A DNA stretch of 64,000 nt. Origin: an uncultured Sphingorhabdus sp. (GTDB taxonomy: Bacteria > Pseudomonadota > Alphaproteobacteria > Sphingomonadales > Sphingomonadaceae). The DNA is taken from positions 412,578 through 476,577 of the forward strand of contig CANLOL010000001.1 in the NCBI GenBank assembly GCA_947492905.1. Direction: 5' to 3'. Of the stretch, positions 22,813 through 45,174 are shown piece after piece. The notes beneath the pieces were generated by a model. It made no database searches. It saw nothing but the letters and a program-made list of their open reading frames with translations, and had not been told where the DNA came from. The first letter of the stretch is position 1, and each line of letters starts with the position of its first letter. The translations under genes were made by a program, and so were the position numbers.

Positions 22813-22813
22813 A

Positions 22814-25000: not shown

Positions 25001-27270
25001 TCCGTCTCTCCTTCAACATAGACATTATCGTTTAATATGACGCGCTGTTCGCCTTCATAATTAAGCTCAGCAATATTGACCTTTGGTGTGGAAATAAATT
25101 TATTATTGGCGATGCGCGTTTGCGGACGGCCCACCGTATGATTGACCAAAATAGGCGCGGATGCGACAAATTGATTGTCCAATATTTTGGTATATTGCGC
25201 ACCGTGCAACACTATGGCGCTCTTGCTCTCATTATTTTTATCCAGACCGACATTGATAAGCATATTATCTTTCAGATCGAAATGCGGGCCAAATGTACTT
25301 TCATCACGCCCCCCGCGATACAGATTCACAATAGGGCCGCCAATATTTTCAAAATTGGAATCCCTAATATCAACATATTCAGCATTATATTGGCCATAAT
25401 CTTCGGTTTCCGAAGCCGCCAATAAGATTGAGCCGCTAATATTGGTGAATTTGCTATCCTTTATCACCACATGGTCGGCAAAGGTGCTTTTGCCCAATTT
25501 GATAACATCAAAAAATTTATTCACCGAAAGATTGGAAATTTGCACACCTTCCATTTCAATCAGGAAATTACTCTGAATAGGATAGGATGTGGTGCGAATA
25601 AGCGCATTTCCAACGGAATCGGGCGCCAATTCACCGTCAATGGCCAATCCCTCTAAACGCAAACTGCCGCCTTCTGCTATTTCAAACAAAGATGGGCGAT
25701 CAAATAATATTTTCGTTTGGCCGCTCCCTTTAAGGGTGATCGCTTTATCGATGCTAATGGTTTTGCTGACAATATATTCGCCGTCCGCCAATACAATAAC
25801 ATCGCCGCCCTTAGCATTGGAAATGGCTTTTTCAATCACCCCTTCGCTTGGCGTGATAGCAATATCAGAACCGCCATCAAATTTATTGGCTGCGGCTGGT
25901 TTTGGATACCAAGATGCACCCACTTCTTCTTTTTTAATGGGCTTTAGATCGCGCGGCACGCCATATTTTGAAAATTTAGATTTGCGCGGATAGAGCAATC
26001 CATTTTTAGCACGCACCAATTTGGCTTTGATCGTTTTTATGCCATCAGGGTGGTTCGCATGGGCTGCACCAATTCTGGCGTTTTCAGAAAATGTAATCCC
26101 GCTAATATCATCTTGAATGCGAAATATCGGGCCATCCTCACCTGCTGTGATTAAATTACCGCTCATCACACTATCAATTGGCGGAGCGCTGCGCTCGGCA
26201 TCGGCGCCACCGGCTAATGTGATGACATCGCTATTATAAACGCTATTGCCAATGATTTTTGCATCAGACACTTGCACATAACGGTTAACAGGCGAATTTG
26301 GCACACCATTCATAACCGTCAATGCGCTAGCGAAACCGCTGCCGCGCAATCCTTCCATATAATTATGACGGACGGTTTGCCCTTTATTGATAACACGAAT
26401 ACCGCCAGTATGGTCTTTTCCATTGCCCATAAAGACATTGCGTTCCACCAGATTATTATCACCGTGGCGCAATGTTAAAGTGCCGCTGCTTTCAAAGAAA
26501 ACATTGCCGCGCAAAATATTGCCGCCGGATTTAGAGGAAATAATCTCCACCTCGCCATCAGTGCGATCGAAAAAATTATTCTCTACGATAGTGTTGGAAT
26601 TATATTGGGCAAATTTGCTTGTCCCGATACGCAATGTTTCACCACCATTTGAACCAAGTACAGGGCGCGGGCCAAAATAATTATGGTCTATTTTATGGTT
26701 ATTCTCACGGCTATCGGCGCTGTTCAAACGCACCGCAAGCGTAACGCCTTTATTGCTTTTGCCGACCAGATTATTATGGTCAAAGCGATTATTCTGGCCA
26801 TAAATACCGACCCAATAATCATTATCAAAGCGATCAGGCTTGTTAAAATGGTCAACCACAACTTGTGTAATTCGGCTGTTAAATGCCAATTCATTTTTAT
26901 TGCGGCGAAACGAGATTACTTCACCAGTTGGACTATATCCATCCTTAAAAACAAGACCAGAAACTATCAGATAATGCCCGCCAATACGCAAATTGGACTG
27001 ACCAGAGATTATCACCTTGCCTGGCGTTTGTGCTTTCAGGGTGATGGGTTTTTCTGCTGTTCCTTTTGCGCTCAGCGTGATTTCAAAATCTTGCCAAACG
27101 CCATTGGATAAAATGATCGTATCGCCAGCTTGCAGCTTTTTTTCTGCGGCAAAATAATCGCTTTGATTTTTAACGAGATAGTCTGTTGCATGGACGGGAA
27201 CAATCGCCATCCATAGACATATAATTACACCACATGCACGTTGTAACATTCGACTCTCCACACCCATCAT
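24997..27270 (-). CDS. PL6 alginate lyase with second beta-helix domain
   Basis: A 757-aa secreted polysaccharide lyase. The signal peptide ends near VPVHA (residues 23-27). ATG at 27249 (MLQRACG) is an alternative start giving a more standard signal. Residues about 30-400 form a chondroitinase-B-like parallel beta-helix. It carries the PL6 catalytic Lys247 in ISSKSGGN, Arg268 in LTLRHGDNN, and NNF/NYF turn motifs. Residues about 465-757 form a second right-handed beta-helix (GEYIVSKTISIDKAITLKGSGQTKI). Two-domain PL6 enzymes are known. It would cut alginate, perhaps MG blocks, into oligomers for PL17. It leads the lyase-transporter operon. Confidence 0.9.
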   Translation of the reverse strand: MMGVESRMLQRACGVIICLWMAIVPVHATDYLVKNQSDYFAAEKKLQAGDTIILSNGVWQDFEITLSAKGTAEKPITLKAQTPGKVIISGQSNLRIGGHYLIVSGLVFKDGYSPTGEVISFRRNKNELAFNSRITQVVVDHFNKPDRFDNDYWVGIYGQNNRFDHNNLVGKSNKGVTLAVRLNSADSRENNHKIDHNYFGPRPVLGSNGGETLRIGTSKFAQYNSNTIVENNFFDRTDGEVEIISSKSGGNILRGNVFFESSGTLTLRHGDNNLVERNVFMGNGKDHTGGIRVINKGQTVRHNYMEGLRGSGFASALTVMNGVPNSPVNRYVQVSDAKIIGNSVYNSDVITLAGGADAERSAPPIDSVMSGNLITAGEDGPIFRIQDDISGITFSENARIGAAHANHPDGIKTIKAKLVRAKNGLLYPRKSKFSKYGVPRDLKPIKKEEVGASWYPKPAAANKFDGGSDIAITPSEGVIEKAISNAKGGDVIVLADGEYIVSKTISIDKAITLKGSGQTKILFDRPSLFEIAEGGSLRLEGLAIDGELAPDSVGNALIRTTSYPIQSNFLIEMEGVQISNLSVNKFFDVIKLGKSTFADHVVIKDSKFTNISGSILLAASETEDYGQYNAEYVDIRDSNFENIGGPIVNLYRGGRDESTFGPHFDLKDNMLINVGLDKNNESKSAIVLHGAQYTKILDNQFVASAPILVNHTVGRPQTRIANNKFISTPKVNIAELNYEGEQRVILNDNVYVEGETE

Positions 27271-27304
27271 TAAGACTGATAGTTATAAGCCAAAGCCAAT
27301 AGGT

Positions 27305-27357
27305 GTCAACCAATTGACTCTACCAATTATATTTTATTTAATACCAATTCTCATTGG
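27305..27357. promoter_or_regulatory. candidate GntR operator region before PL6
   Basis: The gap between the PL6 start and the regulator's stop holds GTCAACCAATTGAC (5-bp arms), TACCAATT at 27321, and ATACCAATT leading into CCAAT-tctc-ATTGG at 27344-27357. ATACCAA / TTGGTAT half-sites are typical of uronate regulators of the UxuR/ExuR type. Similar half-sites recur before the TonB receptor at 31446-31494. Binding is inferred. Confidence 0.45.
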
Positions 27358-27364
27358 CAAAATG

Positions 27365-28102
27365 CTACATGCGCGTGATAGCTAAAAAACGTTCGCGGCT
27401 CGCATTGGCTTGCTCATGCACTTTTTCCAAAGCTTGCTTTTCAGAAACATCTAACATAGCCTCGATAAGACGGCGAAAATGCCCGCGCATTGCCTGCCTT
27501 GCTGCCATAGGGTTACGCGACTTTAGTGCATCATAAATTTCTCTATGCTCTTTAACACGGCTGGTCGCGTCAATCTCGCAAACCGATTCATAAGCAGTTT
27601 TAATCTGAGATACTTCAGAACGCATTTTCCATAGCGATTTAATCGTATATACAATAGCGGAATTTCCAGTGGCCTCGGCAATTGTGATATGAAATTCATT
27701 ATCAGCGGCCGTAGCTAAAGCCGCATCATCAGAACCCATATCATTAATCAGTTCGTCCAATTTTTGCAGATCTCTCTGGCTAATATTTTGCGCCGCAAGT
27801 GCAGCAGCTTCTGATTCAACCATAGAACGCGCTTCGGTTAATTCAAAAGCACTGATATGTTGCGTATCCGAAGGCTCCGAAGGTTGTTTTTTAGAGACAT
27901 AAACGCCCGATCCGGTTCTTATTTCAATCAAGCCCTTTGCTTGCAGAGCAATTTCCGCCTCTCTAACTGTTACGCGGCTGACACTGAATCGTTCTGATAA
28001 TTCACGCTCGCTTGGTAAGCGCGCACCCGGCAAGAAAACACCTTCTTGGATAAGATTTATAATTTTATCCGCTATTTCGTGATAAAGTCGTTTTTCGGTC
28101 AT
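27365..28102 (-). CDS. GntR-family FCD-domain regulator of the alginate locus
   Basis: A 245-aa FadR-subfamily regulator. The winged HTH occupies residues about 8-75 (ARLPSERELSERFSVSRVTVREAEIALQAKGLIEIRTGSGVYV). The all-helical FCD effector domain occupies about 90-235, with the metal/ligand-binding pattern D-x3-H (NEFHITIAEATGNS) and late His residues (HREIYDAL, MRGHFRRL). Relatives respond to uronates or their catabolites. Its position between the TonB receptor and the lyases, on the same strand, makes it the likely repressor of the locus, relieved by an alginate-derived keto-sugar such as KDG. Target sites are suggested by ATACCAA repeats nearby. Confidence 0.88.
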   Translation of the reverse strand: MTEKRLYHEIADKIINLIQEGVFLPGARLPSERELSERFSVSRVTVREAEIALQAKGLIEIRTGSGVYVSKKQPSEPSDTQHISAFELTEARSMVESEAAALAAQNISQRDLQKLDELINDMGSDDAALATAADNEFHITIAEATGNSAIVYTIKSLWKMRSEVSQIKTAYESVCEIDATSRVKEHREIYDALKSRNPMAARQAMRGHFRRLIEAMLDVSEKQALEKVHEQANASRERFLAITRM

Positions 28103-28237
28103 TTGACTTAACCTTAATATATAATTCTTCTGTTAAATTTCCTAATCATGATAAGCAACTATATTACAATGTCGATCTATTTATTGGCGCAGGGTGATTA
28201 ATAAACCAACCTGCACCATAATAGAACATTTCCGCAG

Positions 28238-31200
28238 TTAGAATTTAACTCTTACGCCTGCGAAATAACGTGGGCCAAACACTTGAACTGCACCCAAATC
28301 TGCCAATGTAGGACGCGAATTGACGCGTGGCTCGTTAAATAGATTCAAGCCCTCTAATGTGAAGCGGATATTATTGTTTATTTTATAAGAAAGACGCGCT
28401 TCAAATATACCCACATCCTGAACAAAACGAATTCTGCCTGGATCAGAGATAAATTGTTGGAAATAATCGCTACGATATTTGTAAACACCTTGGAAATCAA
28501 ATCCACCAATTTGGTAGTAAACTTGCGCTGAAAGCACATGCTCTGACAGACCAAAAATCTCTGAAGGCGGTATCAGCGCATTATTCACACTCGTTGTTCC
28601 ATCTGGATTAACGGTCGTGATTGCACCCAATACATCATCTTGGAATTCAAAATCAGAGGTCGCAAAGTTATAGCTTAGTTTGAAACCAAGACCATCAAAT
28701 GGCGCTGGCAAATAGCTAAAGTTATGCGATGCTGTGGCCTCAATACCAAATATAGAACTTGTCTCATCAGAGGTTTGAACGGTGGTCACCAAAGTATCTA
28801 AATTTTGAGCTGCGCCCGTTTCATCAAACACTGTAAATGTTTCAATCTGTCCCACTGTTTCAAAACCACCGTTGAAGCTCTTATAATAAGCACCAACCGC
28901 CAAAATAGTATCTGGATTGGGATACCATTCCAGCGCCGCATCAAAGTTCCATGACAATAGCGGCTCTGTAAATGGGTTACCAAAGGCTTGTGCAGTACCA
29001 ATGGCCGTTGCAAGATCGAAAATATCATCGGTTTCATCGGTTGCATTAAATTCACGGCCAAAACCTAAGCTTGACGGATCGGGACGCGATAGCGCACGAA
29101 ATACGCCCAAACGACCCAATAGATTATCGCCTAATTCTGCCGTAAAGTTAGCGCTCGGTAGCAATTCAGTATAGCTGCCGCCGCCTTCTACTGCGACTAA
29201 GCTGTCGGTATCTTCGTTAATGCTGATTTCACCGCCAGGCCCTGTTGTTGCATTCAACGTGCCCCTGAAACCACGCGAAGTCACATCGCTGTGAACGATA
29301 CGAAGACCAAAGTTACCGCGCACTGGCAAACTGCCCAATTCACCATCATAATTGGCCTGCACATAACCGGCCCAAGTAATCTCTCTCACATCATTATTTT
29401 CAATGGAGTCAAAAGAGCCGTCTGGAAAAATCGGAATGCCATCGGAGTCAAATTGTAAAAGCCCCGTTTGATCAAATCCTTCGAGATTTTGCGCCAAACA
29501 TAAAGCATCAAATGTCGCAAATGAATTGGTTGAACCGGTCACAACACCATTTGAATCAACGGTGGTCACCAATGGAACGCCATTAGATACTGATGATAAG
29601 AAACCGCTCTCAGGAAATGAAGTGCGACAAGCTAAGCTAGCCTGGGTAAGCGCATTTTGCGGATCGCTATCACCTGGCGTACTATCAATATCTGTAAAGT
29701 TAATTTCGATACGATTGGGACCAGAGCCGCCGTTGGTATCGCGGTAGATAAGATCCTGATAGCGGACACCTGCTTGGACATTATTAATCAAACCATCAAA
29801 TGAATATTCCAAGTCACCGCGCGCAGCAAAGATACTGTTAAAGCGATCTTGGTCCAAGTCAGCGCGCAAACGCGCATCGCCCGCAAAAAGATCATGGTTA
29901 TTTACATCAAAATCTTGCAACACAACGTTGAAAATTTGCGAACCATTTTGTCTGACCTGAATAGCGGCCTCTACGCGGTCATCTTGCGTGCTGCCATCGC
30001 TTTCTCTGCCAAATGTGAAGCTATTCGTATTGCCAAAAATATCACGGCCATCCTCAAGTCTAAAACGAATTTGCACCTGCTCTTCGGTACGCGTTGTTTC
30101 GGAATAAGAGAGGTCTCCCGTCAGGCGCAATCTAGAGGTGGCCTGCACGTCAACACTTAATCCCGTGCCAATATATTCTTCGTCGCGCCGTACAAATTCA
30201 CTGCCCGTTTCAATACGCGTTTCATTGGTGAATTGTTGCAATTCACCATTAGGCCCGACAATCAAATCAAAATCTAGACGGTTGGGATCGCCCGGCCCAT
30301 CTATTCTGCGGCCTTCAGAGAAATTCAAATCATTGCGGCGCTCATCAAAAGAGCGATTCGAATATTGAAAATCCAAATTAATATCGACATTATCATTCGG
30401 CCTAACTTGCAAAGCACCAAAAAATGCATCGCGAACATCGTCCGTTATGTTCTGGCGATACACATAGCTGTTACGGGCAATCACAAAATCATCCGTCACC
30501 GAGCCATCGCGCAATCCAGCAATAGTAGTCCCGCTGGTATCACAATTGCCATCATCAAACACACCATCGCTGGTTGTTGTAGGATCAATCACACAAGGAC
30601 GAACAGTATTACTGACATTGGCCTCTTGCTCTGGGTTGGTTGCCGTATTGCGCTGATAACCAAGAGAGATACCAACTTCACCACCGCCAACTTGGAATTG
30701 ATCAACATAGCTGACTGTTCCGCGATAGCCAAAATCGCGCGAGCGCTGTTCGCTATCAATGTCAAAATTTTGCGGATTATAATTGAGCTTAAATTGCGCT
30801 TGCAAACGTTGCTTGCCATAATCAAGAGGCTTAACCGTTTCCAATGCAATTTGCCCAGCAACACCACCCTCGATCAAGCTAGCAGATTGCGTTTTGAAAA
30901 TGGCAACCTTGTTAAATAATTCTGATGGGAATTGGCTAAAGTTAACAGAACGATCGCCGCTACCATTGGTCGCCAAACGGCCATTGATAACGGTGGAGCT
31001 TAAAAAGGGCCCAAGGCCGCGAATAGCAATTTCAGTTGCCCCGCCTTGTTCACGGTGCGATGCCGCACCCGTTAATGTCTCCAGAGCTTCACCAATTGAT
31101 AATGCAGGCAAATCACCAATTTCATCGGCGGATAATGCATCCACGATCAAATCATCGCGGCGCTTAACTTCGATAGAATCTTGTATGGTTGCTCTAATAC

Positions 31201-31372
31201 CCTCAACAACAATGGCATCACCTTCTTCTGCTTGTTCAGGTGCTTCTTGCTCTTCTGCTTCTTGTGCCATAGCAGGCTGCGCAAGTAATGCTATTGCACT
31301 GCTTCCAATTAACATCTTTGTTAGATGTTTATATTTGGAGCTTCCATAGCCCAAGGGTTTTGTTGAACGCAT
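28238..31372 (-). CDS. TonB-dependent receptor, probable alginate oligomer importer
   Basis: A 1,044-aa outer-membrane receptor with a signal peptide (residues about 1-36, ending AMAQEA). After an acidic stretch comes a TonB-box-like DAIVVEG, then the plug domain (RRDDLIVDALSADEIGDLPALSIGEALE, AIRGLGPFLSSTVINGR). A large barrel follows, with a C-terminal strand ending in Phe (GPRYFAGVRVKF). Size and motifs match the sphingomonad/Caulobacter group of carbohydrate-linked TonB receptors. Its place at the head of the alginate lyase genes points to import of alginate oligosaccharides. There is a 135-bp gap to the regulator, so it may form a separate transcript. Confidence 0.9.
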   Translation of the reverse strand: MRSTKPLGYGSSKYKHLTKMLIGSSAIALLAQPAMAQEAEEQEAPEQAEEGDAIVVEGIRATIQDSIEVKRRDDLIVDALSADEIGDLPALSIGEALETLTGAASHREQGGATEIAIRGLGPFLSSTVINGRLATNGSGDRSVNFSQFPSELFNKVAIFKTQSASLIEGGVAGQIALETVKPLDYGKQRLQAQFKLNYNPQNFDIDSEQRSRDFGYRGTVSYVDQFQVGGGEVGISLGYQRNTATNPEQEANVSNTVRPCVIDPTTTSDGVFDDGNCDTSGTTIAGLRDGSVTDDFVIARNSYVYRQNITDDVRDAFFGALQVRPNDNVDINLDFQYSNRSFDERRNDLNFSEGRRIDGPGDPNRLDFDLIVGPNGELQQFTNETRIETGSEFVRRDEEYIGTGLSVDVQATSRLRLTGDLSYSETTRTEEQVQIRFRLEDGRDIFGNTNSFTFGRESDGSTQDDRVEAAIQVRQNGSQIFNVVLQDFDVNNHDLFAGDARLRADLDQDRFNSIFAARGDLEYSFDGLINNVQAGVRYQDLIYRDTNGGSGPNRIEINFTDIDSTPGDSDPQNALTQASLACRTSFPESGFLSSVSNGVPLVTTVDSNGVVTGSTNSFATFDALCLAQNLEGFDQTGLLQFDSDGIPIFPDGSFDSIENNDVREITWAGYVQANYDGELGSLPVRGNFGLRIVHSDVTSRGFRGTLNATTGPGGEISINEDTDSLVAVEGGGSYTELLPSANFTAELGDNLLGRLGVFRALSRPDPSSLGFGREFNATDETDDIFDLATAIGTAQAFGNPFTEPLLSWNFDAALEWYPNPDTILAVGAYYKSFNGGFETVGQIETFTVFDETGAAQNLDTLVTTVQTSDETSSIFGIEATASHNFSYLPAPFDGLGFKLSYNFATSDFEFQDDVLGAITTVNPDGTTSVNNALIPPSEIFGLSEHVLSAQVYYQIGGFDFQGVYKYRSDYFQQFISDPGRIRFVQDVGIFEARLSYKINNNIRFTLEGLNLFNEPRVNSRPTLADLGAVQVFGPRYFAGVRVKF

Positions 31373-31683: not shown

Positions 31684-33234
31684 ATGAAGGGGCAAATATC
31701 TAATAATTTTGGGGCGTTCATCAGCTATAGCCATGCCGATTCTGTCATTGCGAAAAAGCTGCATAATGGGCTTGAAACCTATCGACTGCCCAAATCATTG
31801 CGCAATTTACACAATAATGATAGCGGAAAAATTGGCCCGATTTTTCGAGACAGAGAAGATCTCCCCGCTGGGAATGATTTATCCGAATCGGTAAAACAAG
31901 CGCTAGAGCAATCTTCTGCTCTCATTATATTGTGCTCGCCAGAGGCTCAAAAATCACCTTGGGTGTCACGTGAAATCACATTATTTCGTGAACTCCATCC
32001 AGAAAAACCGATTTTAGCAGCGCTTATCGATGGTGAACCAGAGCAATCTTTTCCTAAACCCTTAACCGAAAATGGCCGCGAACCGCTTGCCGCTGATTTG
32101 CGCAAAGAGGGGGATGGATGGAAATTGGGCTTGCTCAAATTAATAGCCGGTATTGCTAACGTACCATTGGATGCCTTGATTCAGCGCGATGCGCAAAGAA
32201 AGTTAAAACATGTGATGGGGATCACACTATTGTCTGGAATTGCCATGATAGTCATGGCCCTAATGACCGCATATGCCATCCAAGCACGCCAAGAAGCGCA
32301 ATATCAACAAGAACAAGCCGAAGAGCTTATCATCTTCATGTTGCGCGATTTGCGGGATGAATTAAAAGGCGCAAGCACATTGCGGGTGATGACAAAGGTC
32401 AATCAAGAAGCGATGGAATATTTCACATCGCAAGGTGATCTCAGCAATTTGGATGATGATAGCGTAAGCCTAGTCGCAGAAACATTGCGCGCGCTTGGCG
32501 AAGATCATGAAAAGCGCGGCGATTTAGAGGCTGCTCTAAAACCATTTGAACAAGCGCATCGCTTTACCGCTGAACTGTTGGAGCGTGATCCCGCCAATCC
32601 AGATCGTATTTTCGACCATGCGCAAAGCGAATATTGGGTCGGCCGTATTGACGAATTACGCGAAAACTATCCAGCCGCCCATCAACGCTATAATGCTTAT
32701 GCAGGCCTAGCCAATCGCTTATATGCGATCGAAAAAGACAGCAAAAGAGCTTTGCTAGAGCGGGCTTATGCCGCCAATAATTTGGGCATATTAGAGCATA
32801 AAAATTTCAATGATGATGATAAAGCTCGTGCCCATTTTGGGGATGCAATAGACTGGTTTGAAAAGGCTCTCGCCAATGAAACAAATAACCAAAGTATAGA
32901 GGCCGAACTGGCTAATGCTTATTCATGGTCAGCAGACACACATTATAGAGAGAAAAATTATGAAGCTGCCTTGGCTGCTAGATTAAAAGAAAACGACCTT
33001 AAATCTAAGCTTCTCAAAGCCAATCCTGATAATGCTGACATAAAAATGAAATTGCTAATAAGCGAGCGTGCCATTGCGCTGCTTGAATTACAATTGGGTA
33101 AGGAAGCAATGGCGCGCAAACGTCTCAACATCGCATTAACTGGAGCAACAAAATTGTTGGAATTAGATAAGGAAAATACCGAACGGCGTAAGACATATCG
33201 ACTTATCAAAGAGAGTTTAGAGAGCATCAAATAA
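31684..33234 (+). CDS. TIR-domain / transmembrane / TPR protein
   Basis: A 516-aa membrane protein. Residues 8 to about 160 form a TIR domain: GAFISYSHADS for strand A and box 1, GPIFRDREDLPAGNDL, LIILCSPEAQKSPWVSREI with Glu97 at the place of the NADase glutamate. One membrane helix lies at 177-198. Residues about 250-510 are helical repeats of TPR type (RALGEDHEKRGDLEAALKPFEQAH, ERAYAANNLGILEHKNF, ANAYSWSADTHYREKNYEAAL). The TIR domain would face the cytoplasm. It heads a three-gene plus-strand run (15-bp and 12-bp gaps). TIR domains either signal by contact or consume NAD; Glu97 leaves the second option open. Confidence 0.88.
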   Translation: MKGQISNNFGAFISYSHADSVIAKKLHNGLETYRLPKSLRNLHNNDSGKIGPIFRDREDLPAGNDLSESVKQALEQSSALIILCSPEAQKSPWVSREITLFRELHPEKPILAALIDGEPEQSFPKPLTENGREPLAADLRKEGDGWKLGLLKLIAGIANVPLDALIQRDAQRKLKHVMGITLLSGIAMIVMALMTAYAIQARQEAQYQQEQAEELIIFMLRDLRDELKGASTLRVMTKVNQEAMEYFTSQGDLSNLDDDSVSLVAETLRALGEDHEKRGDLEAALKPFEQAHRFTAELLERDPANPDRIFDHAQSEYWVGRIDELRENYPAAHQRYNAYAGLANRLYAIEKDSKRALLERAYAANNLGILEHKNFNDDDKARAHFGDAIDWFEKALANETNNQSIEAELANAYSWSADTHYREKNYEAALAARLKENDLKSKLLKANPDNADIKMKLLISERAIALLELQLGKEAMARKRLNIALTGATKLLELDKENTERRKTYRLIKESLESIK

Positions 33235-33249
33235 GAGGAGTGAAGCGTT

Positions 33250-34161
33250 ATGCCATTATATACGGATGAAGAATTGCAAGAATTGATTGAGGATGCTGAG
33301 AATGAACAGTTACCATCTATCAATATTGACGAGATCATAGAGTTTGCAAGCTCTATGGACTTTAATTTCCCTAATGATCGTGTTGATGAACTCACAGAGA
33401 GATATAGGTTTAGGTGTTCAAAAAAATATATAGGACCCAACTTACAAACTTATAGAGGGTGCCCCCCAAGTCACGAGAAGAAAGGTAAGTATAAAGCTGA
33501 AAAGCTATATTTTTATTACATGAAGTTTGAGGAAAGCGGGGCTCTAAAATCTCTTGTGTTTTCAAAGGATATGGCATTCAGCGATAATGAAAATGATATA
33601 AAAAATGACATTACCAAGCAAATAGACGTATGGTTAAATACTATAAATGATCCTAATACTAACCCTGATGCTAATACTAGTGTTACTTCCTATCCTTCAG
33701 AAATACAATGGAACAAACCTTGTTACTTAACATTTATGCTTGATAATGAAGATTGGAAGTTCTTTTATAGTAAACGATATAGAACTGGCGCGAATGGCCT
33801 TACCAAAGTTAATGACTCTCTTCATTTCCCTGAAAATGAAAATAACGGCATTAAATATCGCAGAAATAACAACCATTGTTTCCGCAATAGTTTTGAAATA
33901 ACTACCAATGGAAATAATAAAAAAGTACTATGTGTAGAGAACCACCATACCAAATATAGTAACGGCAAACCAAGAGAATATATCACTACCAGCAATGGAG
34001 AAGTAAGGAGTGACCCTCCTGATCATTATAAGTTTGATTTATTTTTCCGTGTAAGCACATCACCAAAAACATATATTGACCCTCAAAACCCCTCGAATGA
34101 TACTGAAAAGAAGATCACAATGATAATCGATCCTACAGGAACGAATTTTGGTCCTCCGTAA
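33250..34161 (+). CDS. unrecognised protein in the TIR operon
   Basis: A 303-aa hydrophilic protein with no signal peptide or membrane helix. The N-terminus is acidic and helical (EELQELIEDAENEQLPSINIDEI). The middle is rich in Asn, Tyr and Lys, and the C-terminus ends with HYKFDLFFRV, then TMIIDPTGTNFGPP. The pattern of beta-rich Tyr/Phe segments suggests an all-beta globular domain. Base composition is more AT-rich than its two neighbours, hinting at separate origin. Ribosome binding site AAGAGGAG precedes the ATG, 15 bp after the TIR gene. I do not recognise a family, so only context suggests joint function. Confidence 0.65.
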   Translation: MPLYTDEELQELIEDAENEQLPSINIDEIIEFASSMDFNFPNDRVDELTERYRFRCSKKYIGPNLQTYRGCPPSHEKKGKYKAEKLYFYYMKFEESGALKSLVFSKDMAFSDNENDIKNDITKQIDVWLNTINDPNTNPDANTSVTSYPSEIQWNKPCYLTFMLDNEDWKFFYSKRYRTGANGLTKVNDSLHFPENENNGIKYRRNNNHCFRNSFEITTNGNNKKVLCVENHHTKYSNGKPREYITTSNGEVRSDPPDHYKFDLFFRVSTSPKTYIDPQNPSNDTEKKITMIIDPTGTNFGPP

Positions 34162-34173
34162 AGCGATCTTACT

Positions 34174-35637
34174 ATGACCACACTCTCTCAAATTCTTTCC
34201 CTCGCCCGTTCAGGCTCGCCTGCGCGGGCTTGGGATTTATTTGCCCAATCCACTTGGGATGAAAGCGATCCAAAGGCGTTCACCCTAAAAGGGCGGTTGC
34301 TAAAGGATCAGGCAAAGGCCGCCAAAAAAGCGCATCACGCCGCCAAGGCCATGCAGCTTTATGAGCAAGCTGCCAATGCCTATGAGCAAGCCGCATTCTT
34401 AAAGTCCGACAGCTATCCGCTGATTAACGCCGCATCGCTAGCGCTGCTAAGCGGCAAACCAAAGCGGGCCAGCGAATTGGCATCGCAAGTCATCACGCTT
34501 ATAGAGAATAATCCTCATGAGGGCGAAAATGCTTATTGGCGCAGTGCTACCCATGCTGAGGCGTTATTGCTGAAGGGTGATGAAATCAAAGCCAGAGCAA
34601 TGTTGGCAGAGGCCATTGCCAAACTACCCAATGCATGGGAGGATCATGCCGCCACTATCGGTCAATTTGAGACCATATTAACCGAGCAAGGCAAAAATTG
34701 CGATTGGTTAGAGCGTCATCGCCCGCCATGTAGCGTCCATTATAGCGGCATTATCCGCCTAGAGGATGACGCCATCAAATCAGACATTGATAGCTATATC
34801 AAAACTATAAAACCTAGCTTTTTCTGCGGCTCGCTCGCCGCTGGCAGCGATATTTTATGCGCGCAATCTTTTTTGCGATATCGCGAAATTCATAATCCAT
34901 TGGCCGAATTACATATCATCCTGCCTTTTCCCATTGATGAATTTTGTCAATTATCAATCACTCCATTCGGACAAAATTGGGTTAAAGATTTTCAGAGCAT
35001 CATTGAGCAAGCCGACACAGTGACAGAAATGGGTTTGGATAATCCACCGCACCATCTTGCCGTTGCGATGGCGGACAAAATCGCTATGGGCCAAGTATTG
35101 CGCAATGCCCGTAATTTACGCAGCAGTGCAAAAGCGCTGACCATAAAAGGCAGAGGCGAAAAATTACGTCCTGAAATAGCAGCATGGCAGCAAGAAGAAT
35201 ATGATCTCACCCAATTGGATGCGAACCGGAAAAGCGGAGATAAAGGGGCATTTACATCAAAAGATAATGGCAAAAAATTGCAAATATTATTATGGTTTAA
35301 TGGCACCGATATAGTGCAAAACGATAATGATATTTTGAAAGCCCATGAAGATGGCCATTATTGGGCCGGCGATGATTTAGAAAAGGCCTATGCAATAGCG
35401 CAGAGCTTCATGAGCGATAGATGCAAAATAGGCTGTATTTTCGATATAATGCATATCCCAACATCAGACATGATAGGGCGCGCAAAAGCCATTGCCTCTG
35501 TATCAAAACCGCATGGGGTGAGCTGTGACTATAACAGCGCTATGGCGTTTGAATTTGCCAATATTACGCAGAGCATCGAAGAATTTGGTGCGCTAAAAAC
35601 GCCATGGGGTATGCAATCTTTATGGCGCATTTTATAG
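34174..35637 (+). CDS. TPR protein with SLOG-like domain and degenerate C-terminal domain
   Basis: A 487-aa cytoplasmic protein. Residues 1-185 are alpha-helical TPR-like repeats (TRAFs-binding/DUF4071-like). Residues about 188-340 resemble the Rossmann-type nucleotide domain found in TPR-linked cyclase proteins: FFCGSLAAGSDILCAQSFL at 216-234 and AELHIILPFPIDEF at 244-257, then a late PPHHLAVAMADKIAMGQ. In relatives a class III adenylate cyclase domain follows. Here residues about 366-487 keep an outline of it (LQILLWFNGTDIV, FGALKTPWGMQSLWRIL) but lack the metal-binding Asp of the usual FxDxxGF motif. So it may sense rather than make a nucleotide. It follows the unknown gene by 12 bp. Confidence 0.65.
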   Translation: MTTLSQILSLARSGSPARAWDLFAQSTWDESDPKAFTLKGRLLKDQAKAAKKAHHAAKAMQLYEQAANAYEQAAFLKSDSYPLINAASLALLSGKPKRASELASQVITLIENNPHEGENAYWRSATHAEALLLKGDEIKARAMLAEAIAKLPNAWEDHAATIGQFETILTEQGKNCDWLERHRPPCSVHYSGIIRLEDDAIKSDIDSYIKTIKPSFFCGSLAAGSDILCAQSFLRYREIHNPLAELHIILPFPIDEFCQLSITPFGQNWVKDFQSIIEQADTVTEMGLDNPPHHLAVAMADKIAMGQVLRNARNLRSSAKALTIKGRGEKLRPEIAAWQQEEYDLTQLDANRKSGDKGAFTSKDNGKKLQILLWFNGTDIVQNDNDILKAHEDGHYWAGDDLEKAYAIAQSFMSDRCKIGCIFDIMHIPTSDMIGRAKAIASVSKPHGVSCDYNSAMAFEFANITQSIEEFGALKTPWGMQSLWRIL

Positions 35638-35652
35638 CGCCGTAAGCATGGT

Positions 35653-36306
35653 CTATATCACCAAATCCTCTAGCATATTGCGTGATATAATTTTTAAGCC
35701 ATTTTCATTTTTTTCAATGATACCGCGCCGCCGCAAATGAGCAATCGCCCGCGATGCTGTTTCCCTAGAGGTTTGCGCCATTAAACCCACGGCCGTAACA
35801 ACGGGAAAAGGCGTTATCATATCGCTATCTTGGGCCAATCGTAATATTTCAGCATGCACACGCCCATCCGCAGTCAAAGAGACATGCATTGCCAGCCGGT
35901 CAATAATGGCATGATATTGATTGCCAAATATTTTCGATAGACCGCGCCCGACACTGGGATATTCATCCACTATAGCCTTTAAATCAGACGTCGAAATTTG
36001 CAAAGCAGACAGATGCCCATATATTTTGACATCAATATTACTCTGCAACGCATCAGGAAAAGCGCCGATTATCTCTCCGGCTCCTTGGGCGGTGAGCAAT
36101 GTAACTTTGCCATCAAATCCTATCGCCTGTAATTGCGCATCGCCATCTAATATCAACCAGATTTGGTCATTCATATCACCTTGATGCAGCAATATTTCTT
36201 TGTTTTTAAATTTTTTAAGAGTCATTTTCGCATTTAGCAATGCTGCTGCTTCCATTGGACATTCTAGATAAGCCGAAAGAATAGAAACACGCTCTTCATT
36301 ATCCAT
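35653..36306 (-). CDS. Crp/Fnr family transcriptional regulator
   Basis: A 217-aa regulator. The N-terminal beta-roll lies at about residues 25-115, followed by the long dimer helix and a C-terminal winged HTH (LMAQTSRETASRAIAHLRRRGIIEK at about 175-199). The phosphate-binding cassette reads GEIIGAFPDALQSNIDVKIYG: the Glu and Arg that hold cAMP in Crp are replaced, and no cysteine cluster of Fnr type is present. The ligand is therefore unknown. It is convergent with the TIR operon (15-bp gap) and could control the neighbouring signalling genes. Confidence 0.88.
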   Translation of the reverse strand: MDNEERVSILSAYLECPMEAAALLNAKMTLKKFKNKEILLHQGDMNDQIWLILDGDAQLQAIGFDGKVTLLTAQGAGEIIGAFPDALQSNIDVKIYGHLSALQISTSDLKAIVDEYPSVGRGLSKIFGNQYHAIIDRLAMHVSLTADGRVHAEILRLAQDSDMITPFPVVTAVGLMAQTSRETASRAIAHLRRRGIIEKNENGLKIISRNMLEDLVI

Positions 36307-36471: not shown

Positions 36472-37917
36472 ATGAAACTATATTTAAGCAGTACAGTAAT
36501 CAGTGCAATAATGCTAGCGCAACCTGCTTTTGCAGAGGGAGACTCAGACACTGGCACGACTAATGTTTCTTTAAATCCAAATTATAGTTTTCAATATTTT
36601 ATTCCGAAAACCAAAATCGTCGCTCAAATTAAACAACGCATTACCAAATGCGAAGTCAAAGATGACAAGCTTAATATCAATATTATCTCTGAGACGTCAA
36701 TGAAAGCGGGTACGAAACCAGATTATAAACGAGTGATCACTATCAACGGTAAAAGCAGTTTTTTAGTAAATCGCAGTTCTAGATTAACATTGAACAATGA
36801 TGGCACATTGAAAGGGTTTAATGGCAGTGCAACGGGGCAAGGTGGTCCGGTTTTATCCGCAGTAATTCAAACAGCCGCTTTGGGTGCTTCGTTAGCAGTT
36901 AACCCTGTTATTGGGGCTGGAAACACTTTAAATACAATTAATAATGCTAAATCTAAGGAAAAGACTGTAGATAGAAACACTAGAATTCGTGTTTATATTC
37001 CTGAATGTCAAAAGAATATAGTCGCAGCTTTAAAAGGCCTAGAAGAAGCAACTACTGCTCGCAAAAAAATACGCAATGCCATTGCCAATGGCGAGGCAGG
37101 AACAGTTATGACCGAAGAATTAACCCGAATAGATAAAGATATAGAAAATCTAAGAAAGATTTTGACGATAACATCTAGTGTTTCTCTAATTCCCAAGGAT
37201 ATGACGGCGACCAAAAAAATTGATCCCATGACAATGAATAAAGAATATAAGAAATGGTTTAAAATTAAGAGCGAAGAGATACTTATAACTGATCAAGATT
37301 TAGTAGAAAAAAAATATACTATAATCGATCCAGGAATGACAAATATATCAGTCATAGATTTTCTCAAAGCAGAAGCTAAGAGAGAAAATAGCCTTTTTGA
37401 TTTACCAGGAATTTATGGTTTCAAAATGGAAGTTACTGCTGACAATGATGCATTGATTGCAACAAATGGGTCAAATAAAATTGATAAGAACATTCTAGCT
37501 AGTGTTTATGATGACAAAGACTTTGTCTATGTCCACCCGATACCAGCGATAGCAAAATTCTATGCCTGCGCTGATGACAAATGTACAAAAGCATCAACAG
37601 CAAAAAACACAAGCGCAATAACAGAAACATTACTCCCGCAACTTTCTAAATTACATAACATCAGCACGGGTGGCAGCATATTTGCTAGCCGCACTGTATC
37701 TGCCACATTCGGACCTTATGGCGAACCATTAACATTAGAATATACTAAGGGCGGGGGCGGTGCTCAAATTGCATCTGTTATAAATGCAGCTGGTCAAGCG
37801 GCTACTACAATTGACGGTGCTAGCTTACAAGCAACGCAAGATGAAATAGCGCGAATTACAGCCGAAAGAGAATTAGATAGACTCTTAAATGAGCCTAATA
37901 CCGACGATGAAAATTAA
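36472..37917 (+). CDS. large secreted protein, function unknown
   Basis: A 481-aa exported protein with a signal peptide (residues 1-22, ending PAFAEG). The body is Lys, Asn and Thr rich. A Gly/Ala-rich turn region (GPVLSAVIQTAALGASLAVNPVIGAGN) lies at about 123-150. A charged helical segment follows at about 182-228 (EEATTARKKIRNAIANGEAGTVMTEELTRIDKDIENL), and there is a C-terminal Gly-rich patch, GGGGAQIASVINAAGQAATT. Two cysteines at FYACADDKC could form a disulfide. A possible 9-bp hairpin (AGGCGCGCC / GGCACGCCT) lies at the stop. No family is recognised. An A-rich leader with AAGGAATAG precedes the ATG. Confidence 0.6.
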   Translation: MKLYLSSTVISAIMLAQPAFAEGDSDTGTTNVSLNPNYSFQYFIPKTKIVAQIKQRITKCEVKDDKLNINIISETSMKAGTKPDYKRVITINGKSSFLVNRSSRLTLNNDGTLKGFNGSATGQGGPVLSAVIQTAALGASLAVNPVIGAGNTLNTINNAKSKEKTVDRNTRIRVYIPECQKNIVAALKGLEEATTARKKIRNAIANGEAGTVMTEELTRIDKDIENLRKILTITSSVSLIPKDMTATKKIDPMTMNKEYKKWFKIKSEEILITDQDLVEKKYTIIDPGMTNISVIDFLKAEAKRENSLFDLPGIYGFKMEVTADNDALIATNGSNKIDKNILASVYDDKDFVYVHPIPAIAKFYACADDKCTKASTAKNTSAITETLLPQLSKLHNISTGGSIFASRTVSATFGPYGEPLTLEYTKGGGGAQIASVINAAGQAATTIDGASLQATQDEIARITAERELDRLLNEPNTDDEN

Positions 37918-38748: not shown

Positions 38749-38877
38749 ACCCCTTTATAGATGATAGGAATCTAATTAAAGATCGGGGGTCTTTTGAAAA
38801 TGTACCATTTGGTATAAATGAGTATTATTTTTCAAAGTCATGTATATTATAGCTATATCTGTGGGGGGCAGATAAAT

Positions 38878-40614
38878 ATGGCAAGTGATACAGAAGCTAC
38901 AAATGCAATAGATCAAGACCTCATCAAACTGGCCTATTCGATGGCAATCGATAGAAAAAGGTTTGAAGAAATGTTCATTCTATTGAGCGATAAATTTGAC
39001 GATCTAAGCAATGATGTTCCACAGTTTGACCAAATATCATCGCCCGATTTTGTTAAATTAGAAACGCATTTTGAACATGCGCAATCCCTCATGGATGCGC
39101 AAGGACGCGAGATGGATACGGCCACCCACTCTATGAAAGTGATTGATGCCGATAATCACCCTTCCATGTTGATAGAGCCCGATGGGCGTGTTTTTTATGC
39201 CAACAAACCGGCCATTGAAATATTTGGAGTAAGAAAAGGCCAATATTTAAAAGATCAAATGTTTGAACATGGTCACCATCAAAATTTCATGAATAATTTG
39301 CGGCGTATGAAAGATTTTGAACCCAATAAAATCATTAGCATTTTCGGTATGAGCAATGTGAATGACCAAGATAATGACGAAATAATCAAAATCGCTCTCA
39401 CAAAAGCCCATACGGCAAATGGCGATATAATGGCCCATATTTCCGCGATTAATATCAGTTGGATGGACAGCACAGGGCGCGGATTCAAATCATTATTCAA
39501 TTTAACACCAGTCGAAATAGAAATCACCAAAGCTGTCGTTACGGGCGTATCGCTTAATAATTTGGCTGAAAAACGGGGACGTTCTATTGGTACAGTGCGC
39601 AATCAAACCAAAATGTTGCTCGCAAAGCTTAATCTGCGCTCTCAAACGGAATTGGCCTGCCTCTATTCTGGTTTTGCACAATATGATGGTAACTTAGTAT
39701 CGCGCCCATTAGATCCACAAAGTACTGGATATGCCGCCGTGCAAAAAATGCTGTTGCGCGATAATGGACGGATGCTCGATTATCGTACCGCAGGGCCAGC
39801 TAATGGCAGAAATATTATCCTTGTCCCATCATTATTGGGCGGTATGGCCATTACAAAAAAATTGCATGATGCGCTACATCAACACAATATCCGGCTCATA
39901 ATGCCATGGCGTCCAGGAGTAGGGGATAGCGGCATAGATGGAAAACCGTCCAAAAAGTCCTTTATAAAACATAGCGAAGATATAGCAGCGATGCTAAATG
40001 ATCTAAAAATCGGTCAGGCTCCGATCATAGGATATGTGACGGGTGCTCATTATGCTATCGCTGCGGGTCAATATATACAGGATAGAATAAGCCATATTAT
40101 CAATCTGAATGGCATTGTCCCAAGCGCCCATGGCCCGCATCTTAATCTGATAGACAAAAGAGAGCGTACCCGAATGTTCCTGTTGCGGACGACGCCAAAA
40201 ATAGGACGTATGGTCATTCAAGCGGCCATGCGATTGGTGGATTCAGGATATGATTTAGAATTTATCTCCGCCCATTTAAGGAATAGCCCCCTTGATTTGA
40301 AAACAGCTGACGAAGATGAAGTGAAACATTTATTTCGCGCAGATTTTCGGCAAATAACCAAATATGGTTATGATGGATTGATAAATGATCTCATCCTATC
40401 GGCTATGGATTGGTCCTATTTGATAGAGCAATCCCCTTACCCCATTCATAATTTGGTGGGTGCCCACAATATAGATTTCACCCCAGAGGTCATCCAAACA
40501 TATGCGCAGTCTATCGATAATTATAATGTAGAGATTATTGACAATGCAGGACATCTGGCGCTCTATCAACAGCCTGACATTATTTTCGACCGCATTAAGG
40601 CGATCATTGATTAA
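38878..40614 (+). CDS. PAS-LuxR HTH-alpha/beta-hydrolase fusion regulator
   Basis: A 578-aa protein from ATG 38878 (GGGGGGCAG upstream); the frame is open 20 codons further. A helical N-terminus is followed by a PAS-like domain (about 85-195, IEPDGRVFYANKPAIEIFGV). A LuxR-type HTH lies at about 205-265 (LTPVEIEITKAVVTGVSLNNLAEKRGRSIGTVRNQTKMLLAKL). An alpha/beta hydrolase domain fills 285-578 (RPGVGDSG, C-terminal NAGHLALYQQPD with the catalytic-type His). The nucleophile elbow reads GYVTG at 385-389, so Val387 stands where Ser is needed. The hydrolase domain is thus likely a ligand sensor joined to a DNA-binding output. Confidence 0.8.
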   Translation: MASDTEATNAIDQDLIKLAYSMAIDRKRFEEMFILLSDKFDDLSNDVPQFDQISSPDFVKLETHFEHAQSLMDAQGREMDTATHSMKVIDADNHPSMLIEPDGRVFYANKPAIEIFGVRKGQYLKDQMFEHGHHQNFMNNLRRMKDFEPNKIISIFGMSNVNDQDNDEIIKIALTKAHTANGDIMAHISAINISWMDSTGRGFKSLFNLTPVEIEITKAVVTGVSLNNLAEKRGRSIGTVRNQTKMLLAKLNLRSQTELACLYSGFAQYDGNLVSRPLDPQSTGYAAVQKMLLRDNGRMLDYRTAGPANGRNIILVPSLLGGMAITKKLHDALHQHNIRLIMPWRPGVGDSGIDGKPSKKSFIKHSEDIAAMLNDLKIGQAPIIGYVTGAHYAIAAGQYIQDRISHIINLNGIVPSAHGPHLNLIDKRERTRMFLLRTTPKIGRMVIQAAMRLVDSGYDLEFISAHLRNSPLDLKTADEDEVKHLFRADFRQITKYGYDGLINDLILSAMDWSYLIEQSPYPIHNLVGAHNIDFTPEVIQTYAQSIDNYNVEIIDNAGHLALYQQPDIIFDRIKAIID

Positions 40615-41732: not shown

Positions 41733-41871
41733 ATCGGAATAATTATAAAATGCGGCATGGTTGCAAATCGGGAACAATGTTATAGTAAACCTTATAGTGC
41801 CTAAATTAACGATTTGTTAACCATATAATCGCATAGATTTGCTACATATTTGCAAATATTAAGGAAAAGCT

Positions 41872-42909
41872 TTGGCCCAATTATCATCTGCTATTTCAAA
41901 GGTTTTAATCACAGGCGGCACTGGCAGTTTTGGCAAGACCATGCTCAAAGGATTGCTGAAAGAAGATGTTTCAGAAGTGCGCGTTTTCAGCCGTGACGAA
42001 GAAAAGCAAGATATGCTGCGCAATCAAATTACCGATCCGCGCGTGCGCTTTTTCATCGGTGATGTGCGTGATCGCACTAGCGTAGACCGCGCCATGAAGG
42101 GGGTGGATGCTTGTTTTCATGCAGCGGCCCTCAAACAAGTGCCATCATGCGAATTTTTCCCATTAGAGGCGGTGCGCACCAATATATTGGGCAGCGAAAA
42201 TGTAATCCGCAGCGCAATAGAACAGCAAGTCAAAAGCTTAGTATGCCTATCCACCGATAAGGCCGTCATGCCGATTAATGCAATGGGCCTGTCCAAAGCG
42301 ATGATGGAAAAGTTGGTTCAAGCCGCAGCCCGTGAAATTGGCACCGATGCCGATACCACCATCAGCTGTGTGCGCTATGGTAATGTTATGTATTCGCGAG
42401 GTTCGGTCATTCCATTATTTGTGAATCAGATTAAACAAGGCATTCCCATCACCATTACAGAGCCGCAAATGACGCGCTTTTTAATGCCGCTTAGCGATAG
42501 TGTTGCGCTGGTGAATTTTGCTTTTGAACATGCACGCCAAGGCGATTTATTCATCAAAAAAGCTGCTGCAAGCACGATAGAAGATTTGGTCACGGGCTTA
42601 TTAGAGCTATTTGGACGCCCTGACCATGAAGTTAAAATCATCGGCTGGCGCCATGCCGAAAAATTATATGAGACATTGGCCAGCTTGCAAGAGCTTACTA
42701 CCGCACAAGATATGGATGAATATTGGCGTTTGCGCCTTGATGCGCGCGATCTTCATTATAGCGCTTATTTCTCTGAAGGTGTTGAAAAAACAGGACCATT
42801 AGAAGATTATCATAGCCATAATACGCAGCGCCTAGATGTCCAAGGCGTCAAAGATATATTGCTCGCCCTGCCCGAAATTCAGGATGAATTAAAGGCATGG
42901 AACGCATAA
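41872..42909 (+). CDS. fnlA: UDP-GlcNAc 4,6-dehydratase / 5-epimerase (inverting)
   Basis: First enzyme of UDP-L-FucNAc synthesis (FnlA/WbjB/CapE). It is 345 aa from a TTG start with AAGGAA upstream. The NAD-binding motif TGGTGSFG spans residues 14-21. It has RDEEKQDMLRN, the FHAAALKQVP loop and CLSTDKAV. The active-site segment AMGLSKAMMEK has Met where ordinary SDRs have Tyr, as in CapE. The segment VRYGNVMYSRGSVIPLF matches the family closely. It is the first gene of a plus-strand series, with 138 bp of upstream DNA for a promoter. It would act on UDP-GlcNAc in the cytoplasm. Confidence 0.9.
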   Translation: MAQLSSAISKVLITGGTGSFGKTMLKGLLKEDVSEVRVFSRDEEKQDMLRNQITDPRVRFFIGDVRDRTSVDRAMKGVDACFHAAALKQVPSCEFFPLEAVRTNILGSENVIRSAIEQQVKSLVCLSTDKAVMPINAMGLSKAMMEKLVQAAAREIGTDADTTISCVRYGNVMYSRGSVIPLFVNQIKQGIPITITEPQMTRFLMPLSDSVALVNFAFEHARQGDLFIKKAAASTIEDLVTGLLELFGRPDHEVKIIGWRHAEKLYETLASLQELTTAQDMDEYWRLRLDARDLHYSAYFSEGVEKTGPLEDYHSHNTQRLDVQGVKDILLALPEIQDELKAWNA

Positions 42910-44015: not shown

Positions 44016-44025
44016 GATATAAATT

Positions 44026-45162: not shown

Positions 45163-45174
45163 AAGGGCCACTCT

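What the first reader, a model, noticed from the sequence alone, without database searches (positions are those of the whole stretch)
31684..35637. TIR-TM-TPR / unknown / TPR-SLOG-like operon with degenerate cyclase end
Three tightly spaced plus-strand genes join a membrane TIR domain keeping a candidate NADase glutamate (Glu97), an unknown beta-rich protein, and a TPR protein with a Rossmann-like domain resembling the SLOG-type nucleotide sensor. Its C-terminus looks like a cyclase that lost its metal Asp. In Thoeris defence, TIR enzymes make a nucleotide signal sensed by a SLOG domain. The same logic could operate here, with the third protein as receptor and the TIR protein as producer. This is a candidate undescribed signalling or defence system.
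Basis: inference. Interest (0 to 1): 0.7.

Follow-up and report, generated by a model that had tools for sequence, protein, structure and literature searches.

The report
TIR receptor cassette with swappable partner
This is a conserved four-gene bacterial signalling cassette, probably an alarm or defence circuit, in which a membrane TIR protein travels with a fast-changing small partner protein, and in which an old cyclic-nucleotide relay (the enzyme and its neighbouring receptor) appears to have decayed at both ends.

Summary
TIR-TM-TPR, an unknown gene (U) and a TPR/Rossmann/degenerate-cyclase gene (T3) lie at 31684-35637. The unit is larger: a CRP-like gene (35653-36306, minus) follows T3 in 19 of 25 loci.

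The order TIR-U-T3 recurs in every relative readable on both sides. The TIR glutamate (Glu97) is invariant in 21 of 21. The AlphaFold model of T3 is good (pLDDT 89.5). Its Rossmannoid domain aligns in register with LOG, a SLOG family, but weakly (P=0.001). Six order-level T3 homologues carry a recognisable class III cyclase. Where it is intact, the neighbouring CRP keeps its cNMP-binding motif (5/5); where it is degenerate, the motif is lost (14/14).

U is not anonymous: relatives hit Pfam pNTSase1. Its model best matches SO1698 (DP-EP, PDB title "aspartic peptidase"), and it keeps an invariant C-terminal Asp-Pro. True DP-EP genes follow wHTH-STAND proteins that share the same TM-TPR module. 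The C-terminal TPR half and U were exchanged together between sister loci.

The TIR-to-SLOG logic is plausible but biochemically untested. "Undescribed" is only partly right: TPR-S and pNTSase1 are already Pfam families. Verdict: a new variant of a known kind, function inferred.

The parts
31684..33234 (+). Gene 1: TIR-TM-TPR protein, 516 aa
   Evidence: ORF; TIR_2 and ThsB_TIR; 24 homologues, most adjacent to T3
31705..32178 (+). TIR domain, residues about 8-165
   Evidence: Pfam, alignment A3
31972..31974 (+). Glu97, candidate NADase glutamate in the SxWVxxE motif
   Evidence: invariant in 21 of 21 homologues
32212..32268 (+). Single transmembrane segment, residues about 177-195; positive charges favour the N side (TIR cytoplasmic)
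   Evidence: hydropathy and charge count in 23 + 10 proteins
32296..32649 (+). Conserved juxtamembrane/TPR half, shared with wHTH-nSTAND1-TM-TPR proteins
   Evidence: profile A3 hits to those proteins 1e-44 to 1e-51; profile A9 search
32650..33231 (+). C-terminal TPR half; exchanged together with gene 2 between sister loci
   Evidence: identity falls from 84-92% to 16-32% at about residue 325 against L022; covaries with U over 21 loci
33250..34161 (+). Gene 2 (U): hypervariable partner, 303 aa; pNTSase1-like / DP-EP-like
   Evidence: window U against the pNTSase1-related subset A6 hhalign E=5e-7; 9 of 18 relatives hit PF20301; best PDB fold match SO1698
34129..34134 (+). Invariant C-terminal Asp294-Pro295 of U (IDPTGTN tail)
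   Evidence: D and P are the only invariant columns besides Met1 in 18 sequences
34174..35637 (+). Gene 3 (T3): TPR-S / SLOG-like / pseudo-cyclase protein, 487 aa
   Evidence: Pfam TPR-S; AlphaFold model pLDDT 89.5
34180..34689 (+). T3 TPR-S / TRAFs-binding-like helical repeats, residues 3-172
   Evidence: PF20308 in 21 of 22 homologues, PF13281 in 18 of 22
34705..35151 (+). T3 Rossmannoid, SLOG-like domain, residues about 178-326, with GxLAAGxDI motif
   Evidence: model topology; conserved columns; LOG match P=0.001
35269..35634 (+). T3 degenerate class III cyclase-like domain, residues about 366-487
   Evidence: homologues with Guanylate_cyc; alignment; Foldseek to 5oyh guanylyl cyclase core
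35653..36306 (-). Gene 4: CRP/FNR-like regulator with degenerate cNMP pocket (GAFP in place of FGE...R-S/T-A)
   Evidence: cNMP_binding and HTH_Crp_2; adjacent in 19 of 25 loci and motif comparison
32644..34169 (+). Exchange block (C-terminal TPR half + U) without DNA similarity to L022, between blocks of 83% and 81% identity
   Evidence: blastn and windowed identity

Best explanation
A four-gene membrane alarm circuit. Gene 1 is a transmembrane receptor: cytoplasmic TIR enzyme, one TM helix, TPR sensor. U is its variable partner, a small DP-EP-like beta protein that probably sets what is sensed, perhaps through Asp-Pro self-cleavage near its C-terminus. On triggering, the TIR domains assemble and convert NAD+ into a nucleotide signal. 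T3 receives that signal through its TPR-S/SLOG-like part. Ancestrally T3 answered by making a cyclic mononucleotide read by the adjacent CRP regulator. In this clade both the cyclase and the CRP nucleotide pocket have decayed, so T3 now most likely acts on the regulator by direct contact or through another ligand, changing transcription. Shown here by sequence: the conserved gene set, invariant Glu97, the folds, the TPR-C/U exchange, and the cyclase/CRP co-decay. Inferred: NADase activity, signal identity, T3 as receptor, U cleavage, and the T3-CRP link.
For: TIR-U-T3 order conserved; Glu97 invariant; T3 model and SLOG-like match; intact cyclase in order-level relatives; CRP adjacency in 19 of 25 loci and intact nucleotide motif in exactly the five CRP-bearing loci with a recognisable cyclase; U fold and tail resemble DP-EP; DP-EP genes directly follow wHTH-nSTAND1-TM-TPR genes with the same TM-TPR module; U covaries with the C-terminal TPR half and not with TIR or T3.
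Against: No biochemical evidence. A single TM with N-in topology would put the TPR half in the periplasm, yet only 3 of about 30 U or DP-EP proteins have a clear N-terminal hydrophobic segment. U and TPR-C are adjacent on DNA, so linkage alone could cause part of the covariation. The cyclase/CRP co-decay may reflect a single evolutionary event. The U to DP-EP profile match is weak (P 0.02-0.03). The loci sit among housekeeping genes, not in a defence island.
Confidence: 0.42

Rival explanations
1. U is a nucleotide synthetase, as the Pfam name of PF20301 predicts. It makes the signal, the TPR-S protein senses it, and the membrane TIR is the killing effector that depletes NAD+.
For: 9 of 18 U relatives hit PF20301 pNTSase1, best 1.5e-12; G059 8e-43. 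A TIR NADase as final effector is common in bacterial immunity (general knowledge).
Against: Across 18 U proteins only Met1, Asp294 and Pro295 are invariant, which is unlike an enzyme. U is hypervariable while its neighbours are about 80% identical. Best fold match is the DP-EP protein SO1698, not a nucleotidyltransferase.
Confidence: 0.18
2. A Thoeris-like anti-phage system: TIR makes a cADPR-type signal that T3 binds, leading to abortive infection.
For: ThsB_TIR and PADLOC ThsB/SAVED_TIR matches on gene 1; SLOG-like receptor domain; fast-evolving, swapped recognition module.
Against: No SIR2, Macro or other known Thoeris effector. No PADLOC defence gene among eight neighbours, where only the CRP-like gene rang through its cNMP domain. 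Chromosomal housekeeping flanks; no match in phages and one plasmid record for T3.
Confidence: 0.2
3. A housekeeping envelope-stress or surface-sensing regulator: TIR serves as an assembly scaffold, T3 and the CRP-like protein change transcription, with no NAD+ cleavage and no defence role.
For: CadC-like sister architecture wHTH-nSTAND1-TM-TPR with DP-EP partners; output gene is a transcription factor; housekeeping flanks.
Against: Glu97 and the active-site motif are invariant, which suggests retained catalysis; patchy presence and a hypervariable module suggest conflict.
Confidence: 0.17
4. Chance neighbours with no functional link.
For: None beyond the general frequency of TPR proteins.
Against: The same order in all readable relatives across several families; DP-tailed ORFs: 25 of 26 lie directly after a TM-TPR gene.
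Confidence: 0.02

Closest known systems
TPR-S (PF20308) / pNTSase1 (PF20301) predicted conflict proteins
   Same: T3 hits TPR-S above cut-off; U relatives hit pNTSase1; from memory, Burroughs and Aravind 2020 (J Bacteriol, not held in the library) proposed a TPR scaffold reading NAD-derived signals
   Different: Window U itself does not hit pNTSase1. DP-EP link, TPR-C/U exchange and cyclase/CRP co-decay were not found described in the papers I could search. The synthetase reading of U is doubted here
Thoeris (ThsB TIR + ThsA SIR2-SLOG)
   Same: TIR protein plus a protein with a SLOG-like domain
   Different: No SIR2 domain; membrane TIR with TPR; extra U and CRP genes; degenerate cyclase
Pycsar (cyclase + cNMP-sensing effector)
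   Same: Order-level relatives pair a class III cyclase with a cNMP-binding protein
   Different: The cNMP protein is a CRP-type DNA-binding regulator; TIR is in another protein; in the window both cyclase and pocket are degenerate
DP-EP family PF08985 (SO1698; DUF1888)
   Same: Predicted fold match, C-terminal DPxxxN tail, adjacency to the same TM-TPR module
   Different: Window U is longer and does not reach the Pfam model; self-cleavage untested
wHTH-nSTAND1-TM-TPR + DP-EP gene pairs of other Pseudomonadota (L091-L096, L132)
   Same: Homologous TM-TPR module followed directly by a DP-tailed gene
   Different: Output is a DNA-binding/STAND part instead of TIR; no T3

Membership tests
Thoeris | TIR protein of ThsB type | tested here: met
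   PF08937 ThsB_TIR E=1.3e-11 over cut-off
Thoeris | ThsA effector (SIR2-SLOG or TM-Macro) | tested here: not met
   No SIR2 or Macro hit in the three genes or in the eight PADLOC-scanned neighbours
SLOG superfamily | Rossmannoid fold with nucleotide-site motif after strand 2 | tested here: inconclusive
   Five-stranded Rossmannoid model and in-register LOG match P=0.001, but no Pfam SLOG hit and no PDB sequence match
SLOG superfamily | Binding of a TIR-derived nucleotide | not testable with these tools
   Needs binding assay
TPR-S (PF20308) | Score above curated cut-off | tested here: met
   35.9 bits against 27.6; 21 of 22 homologues match at E<=0.1
pNTSase1 (PF20301) | Score above curated cut-off for window U | tested here: not met
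   No hit for the window protein; related by hhalign E=5e-7 to relatives in alignment A6, and 9 of 18 family members hit it
DP-EP (PF08985) | Score above curated cut-off for window U | tested here: not met
   0 families; a TIR-linked relative (L128) reaches only E=0.009
DP-EP (PF08985) | C-terminal Asp-Pro tail and beta-sandwich fold | tested here: met
   D294-P295 invariant; top two PDB matches are SO1698, prob 0.85 and 0.75, next 0.06; model mean pLDDT only 67
DP-EP (PF08985) | Self-cleavage at Asp-Pro | not testable with these tools
   Needs purified protein
Class III nucleotidyl cyclase | Catalytic domain with both metal Asp and transition-state residues | tested here: not met
   No Guanylate_cyc hit in the window protein; 6 of 22 homologues hit; first metal Asp is Asn. 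The six keep both metal Asp but not the canonical Asn
CRP/FNR regulators | cNMP_binding and HTH_Crp domains | tested here: met
   29.8 and 32.5 bits, both over cut-off
CRP/FNR regulators | Phosphate-binding cassette FGE...R-S/T-A | tested here: not met
   GAFP with two-residue deletion
Pycsar | Active cyclase plus single-protein cNMP-sensing effector | tested here: not met
   Cyclase degenerate; PADLOC matches to the CRP-like gene cover mainly the cNMP-domain region

The most novel reading that the evidence does not exclude
A previously unrecognised class of modular bacterial transmembrane receptors. A fast-evolving Asp-Pro (DP-EP-like) partner and a TM-TPR sensor are exchanged as one specificity cassette and plugged into different cytoplasmic outputs (TIR NADase, or wHTH-STAND). 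In the TIR branch the downstream SLOG/cyclase-to-CRP cyclic-nucleotide relay has been rewired into a nucleotide-independent pseudo-enzyme/pseudo-receptor pair.
Probability: 0.3. Interest if true: 0.82.

Novelty: new variant of a known kind. Interest (0 to 1): 0.6.

Why it matters
It links three things that seem to have been filed apart: TIR/TPR-S systems, a family named by prediction as a nucleotide synthetase, and the DP-EP family with solved structures. It also offers a clean case of a second-messenger enzyme and its receptor decaying together, so one can test what replaces a lost messenger. If the exchanged TPR-C/U unit is a recognition module, swapping it between loci gives a direct way to find what the receptor senses.

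Tried and rejected
T3 by degenerate-peptide scan of GTDB contigs found no relatives; whole-genome search did. Foldseek of T3 was swamped by TPR/OGT structures, so it does not test the SLOG fold. PDB sequence search with the Rossmannoid profile gave only chance hits. Profile comparison of T3 with cpYpsA was spoiled by poor extraction of the control sequences and is ignored; my first DprA/LOG extraction ignored strand and was redone. The chance-neighbour idea was rejected. I first thought the cassette moved between sites in sister genomes; the downstream block (window 41738-46995) is shared with L022 and L023 and a short upstream block with L023, so mobility among these three is not supported. 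U to DP-EP profile comparison with the full mixed U alignment A1 or with A6 or A8 is not significant; only A7 and A11 exceed all 120 column shuffles. The TPR-S paper of 2020 is not in the library, and no held paper mentions pNTSase.
Full report
What is there. The three genes are real and tightly packed (15 and 12 bp gaps). Gene 1 carries a TIR domain (TIR_2 5.4e-14, ThsB_TIR 1.3e-11), one transmembrane segment and TPR-like repeats. Gene 3 (T3) carries TPR-S repeats (PF20308, 1.2e-8) with a weak MAP3K TRAFs-binding match. Gene 2 (U) has no Pfam, NCBIfam or PADLOC match of its own. The window lies in an alphaproteobacterial genome of 2.59 Mb that holds no second T3. The best named relative found is Novosphingobium sp. 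RL4 (Sphingomonadaceae), with TIR, U, T3 and a CRP-like gene in a row.

Conservation. T3 homologues occur in 27 of 101 relatives, 11 of 43 genera. In every T3 locus whose contig reaches far enough upstream, a TIR-TM-TPR gene and a middle gene precede T3 in the same order. Glu97, in the SxWVxxE motif, is invariant in 21 of 21 TIR proteins. A fourth gene, a CRP-like regulator, lies directly after T3 in 19 of 25 loci, usually convergent.

T3. The AlphaFold model is good (mean pLDDT 89.5, pTM 0.85): helical repeats, a five-stranded Rossmannoid domain (about 178-326) and a C-terminal alpha/beta domain. The Rossmannoid domain has the conserved motif GxLAAGxDI...AELHVVLP. Against alignments from known SLOG families it aligns in register with LOG (YGGxxxGLMG...GGxVxGIIP) at hhalign P=0.001. 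The positive control DprA versus LOG gives only P=0.02. No Pfam SLOG model and no PDB sequence rings. I read this as SLOG-like, not proven SLOG.

The cyclase end. Six of 22 T3 homologues match Guanylate_cyc, with shown E-values of 2.7e-13, 5.2e-11 and 4.9e-9. They retain FADV(R) and WGDG, the two metal-Asp sites, though not the canonical transition-state Asn. In the window's clade the match is lost, the RIGGHYGPV segment is deleted, and the first metal Asp is Asn in the window but Asp in the two closest relatives.

Co-decay. In the five CRP-bearing loci with a recognisable cyclase (L041, L043, L044, L045, L047) the CRP keeps its nucleotide cassette, (F/I)GEM...R(T/S). In all 14 CRP-bearing loci with a degenerate cyclase the Glu and the spacing are lost (GAYP, GAFP, GALP, GSYP). 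The Novosphingobium copy also reads FGAYP. This fits a cNMP relay from T3 to the CRP that was lost at both ends. It may be one evolutionary event, so it is not many independent observations.

U. Relatives of U hit pNTSase1 (PF20301, predicted novel nucleotide synthetase) in 9 of 18 cases, best 1.5e-12. In a sample of 399 genomes of the phylum that family was found in four, all in the window's order and all beside this kind of TIR gene. The window U relates to the subset A6 at hhalign E=5e-7. Only Met1, Asp294 and Pro295 are invariant in 18 U proteins. The model of U is modest (pLDDT 67), but its two best PDB matches are both SO1698, titled an aspartic peptidase (prob 0.85 and 0.75; next 0.06). 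From memory, SO1698 (DUF1888/DP-EP) cleaves itself at an Asp-Pro bond near its C-terminus; that paper was not held. DP-EP against U profiles: P=0.02-0.03 over 87 columns with Asp-Pro in register, and 0 of 120 column shuffles reach the score for A7 and A11, but A1, A6 and A8 are not significant.

The shared module. All DP-EP genes found in 399 genomes lie directly downstream of wHTH-nSTAND1-TM-TPR genes whose TM-TPR part matches the profile of the window's TIR-TM-TPR protein at about 1e-44 to 1e-51, although those proteins have no TIR domain. (Pfam domains were scanned in two of the six; the others share the same start and the same match.) Conversely, a TIR-TM-TPR gene outside the alphaproteobacteria (L128) is followed by a small protein that ends YISLDPRIVNKP and matches DP-EP weakly (E=0.009). 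Among 433 ORFs of 100-330 aa in the loci examined, 26 have a DPx(2-4)N tail, and 25 of these follow a TM-TPR gene directly or in tandem. TM-TPR genes scoring lower lack such a neighbour.

Module exchange. Against the sister locus L022, gene 1 is 84-92% identical from about residue 25 to 324, then drops to 16-32%; U is 19% identical; T3 is 81% and the CRP 83%. At DNA level the dissimilar block is 32644-34169, ending at the start of T3. Over 21 loci the similarity of U tracks that of the C-terminal TPR half (rho 0.52; partial 0.43-0.47; permutation p at most 0.0005), but not TIR (0.10) or T3 once TPR-C is accounted for (-0.04). Linkage on DNA could contribute, yet T3 is equally adjacent to U and does not covary.

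Mechanism. The best reading is a receptor (gene 1 with U) that makes a TIR product sensed by T3, which then acts on the CRP-like regulator. Steps shown: the conserved parts and their co-evolution. Steps inferred: catalysis, signal, sensing, cleavage, regulation. An unsolved point is topology: positive-inside counts favour TIR inside and TPR outside, but most U proteins lack a signal peptide.

Comparison and novelty. It works somewhat like Thoeris and, in relatives, like a cyclase/cNMP-receptor relay, but it is a member of neither: the defining effector or the active cyclase is missing. It belongs with the TPR-S/pNTSase1 proteins already in Pfam. The DP-EP connection, the exchange of the recognition unit and the double decay were not found described in the papers I could search; I could not read the key 2020 paper. 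Defence is plausible but unproven: no defence genes among eight scanned neighbours, no phage match and one plasmid record.

Noticed in passing
L024:7382-8056 and L036:7127-7975: In these two loci the middle gene lacks the DP tail and instead ends with HGGIHPP motifs (three HGGI copies in L036), a different tail type in the same position.
   Followed up: partly
window 36472-37917: 481-aa secreted-looking protein next to the CRP gene has a 26% identical relative in the same position in L024 (E=1e-21); no Pfam family above cut-off.
   Followed up: partly
window 38818-40614: Protein combining PAS-like, LuxR-type HTH and alpha/beta-hydrolase matches (Pfam E 0.0026, 0.00085, 1.5e-6), an unusual fusion.
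   Followed up: no
window 21500-31372: Block with GntR and TonB receptor genes, a transporter-like gene and two genes that look like polysaccharide (alginate?) lyases lies directly upstream; the same block is absent between the flanks in L023.
   Followed up: partly
L059-L078: Other alphaproteobacteria have longer T3 homologues (about 590-820 aa) mostly without the TIR-U pair; some lie near large STAND-like or TIR-like genes (L063, L064, L069).
   Followed up: partly
L134:6129-10979: A TIR-TM-TPR gene followed by a protein with DUF4231/SLATT matches and a weak match to the T3 Rossmannoid profile; possibly another receptor variant.
   Followed up: no
L092:6812-7733: Two tandem DP-EP genes follow one wHTH-nSTAND1-TM-TPR gene; the second has a signal-peptide-like start.
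   Followed up: no
U proteins of L022, L028 and L092: Only these carry a clear N-terminal hydrophobic segment, leaving the compartment of U unresolved given the N-in topology predicted for gene 1.
   Followed up: partly
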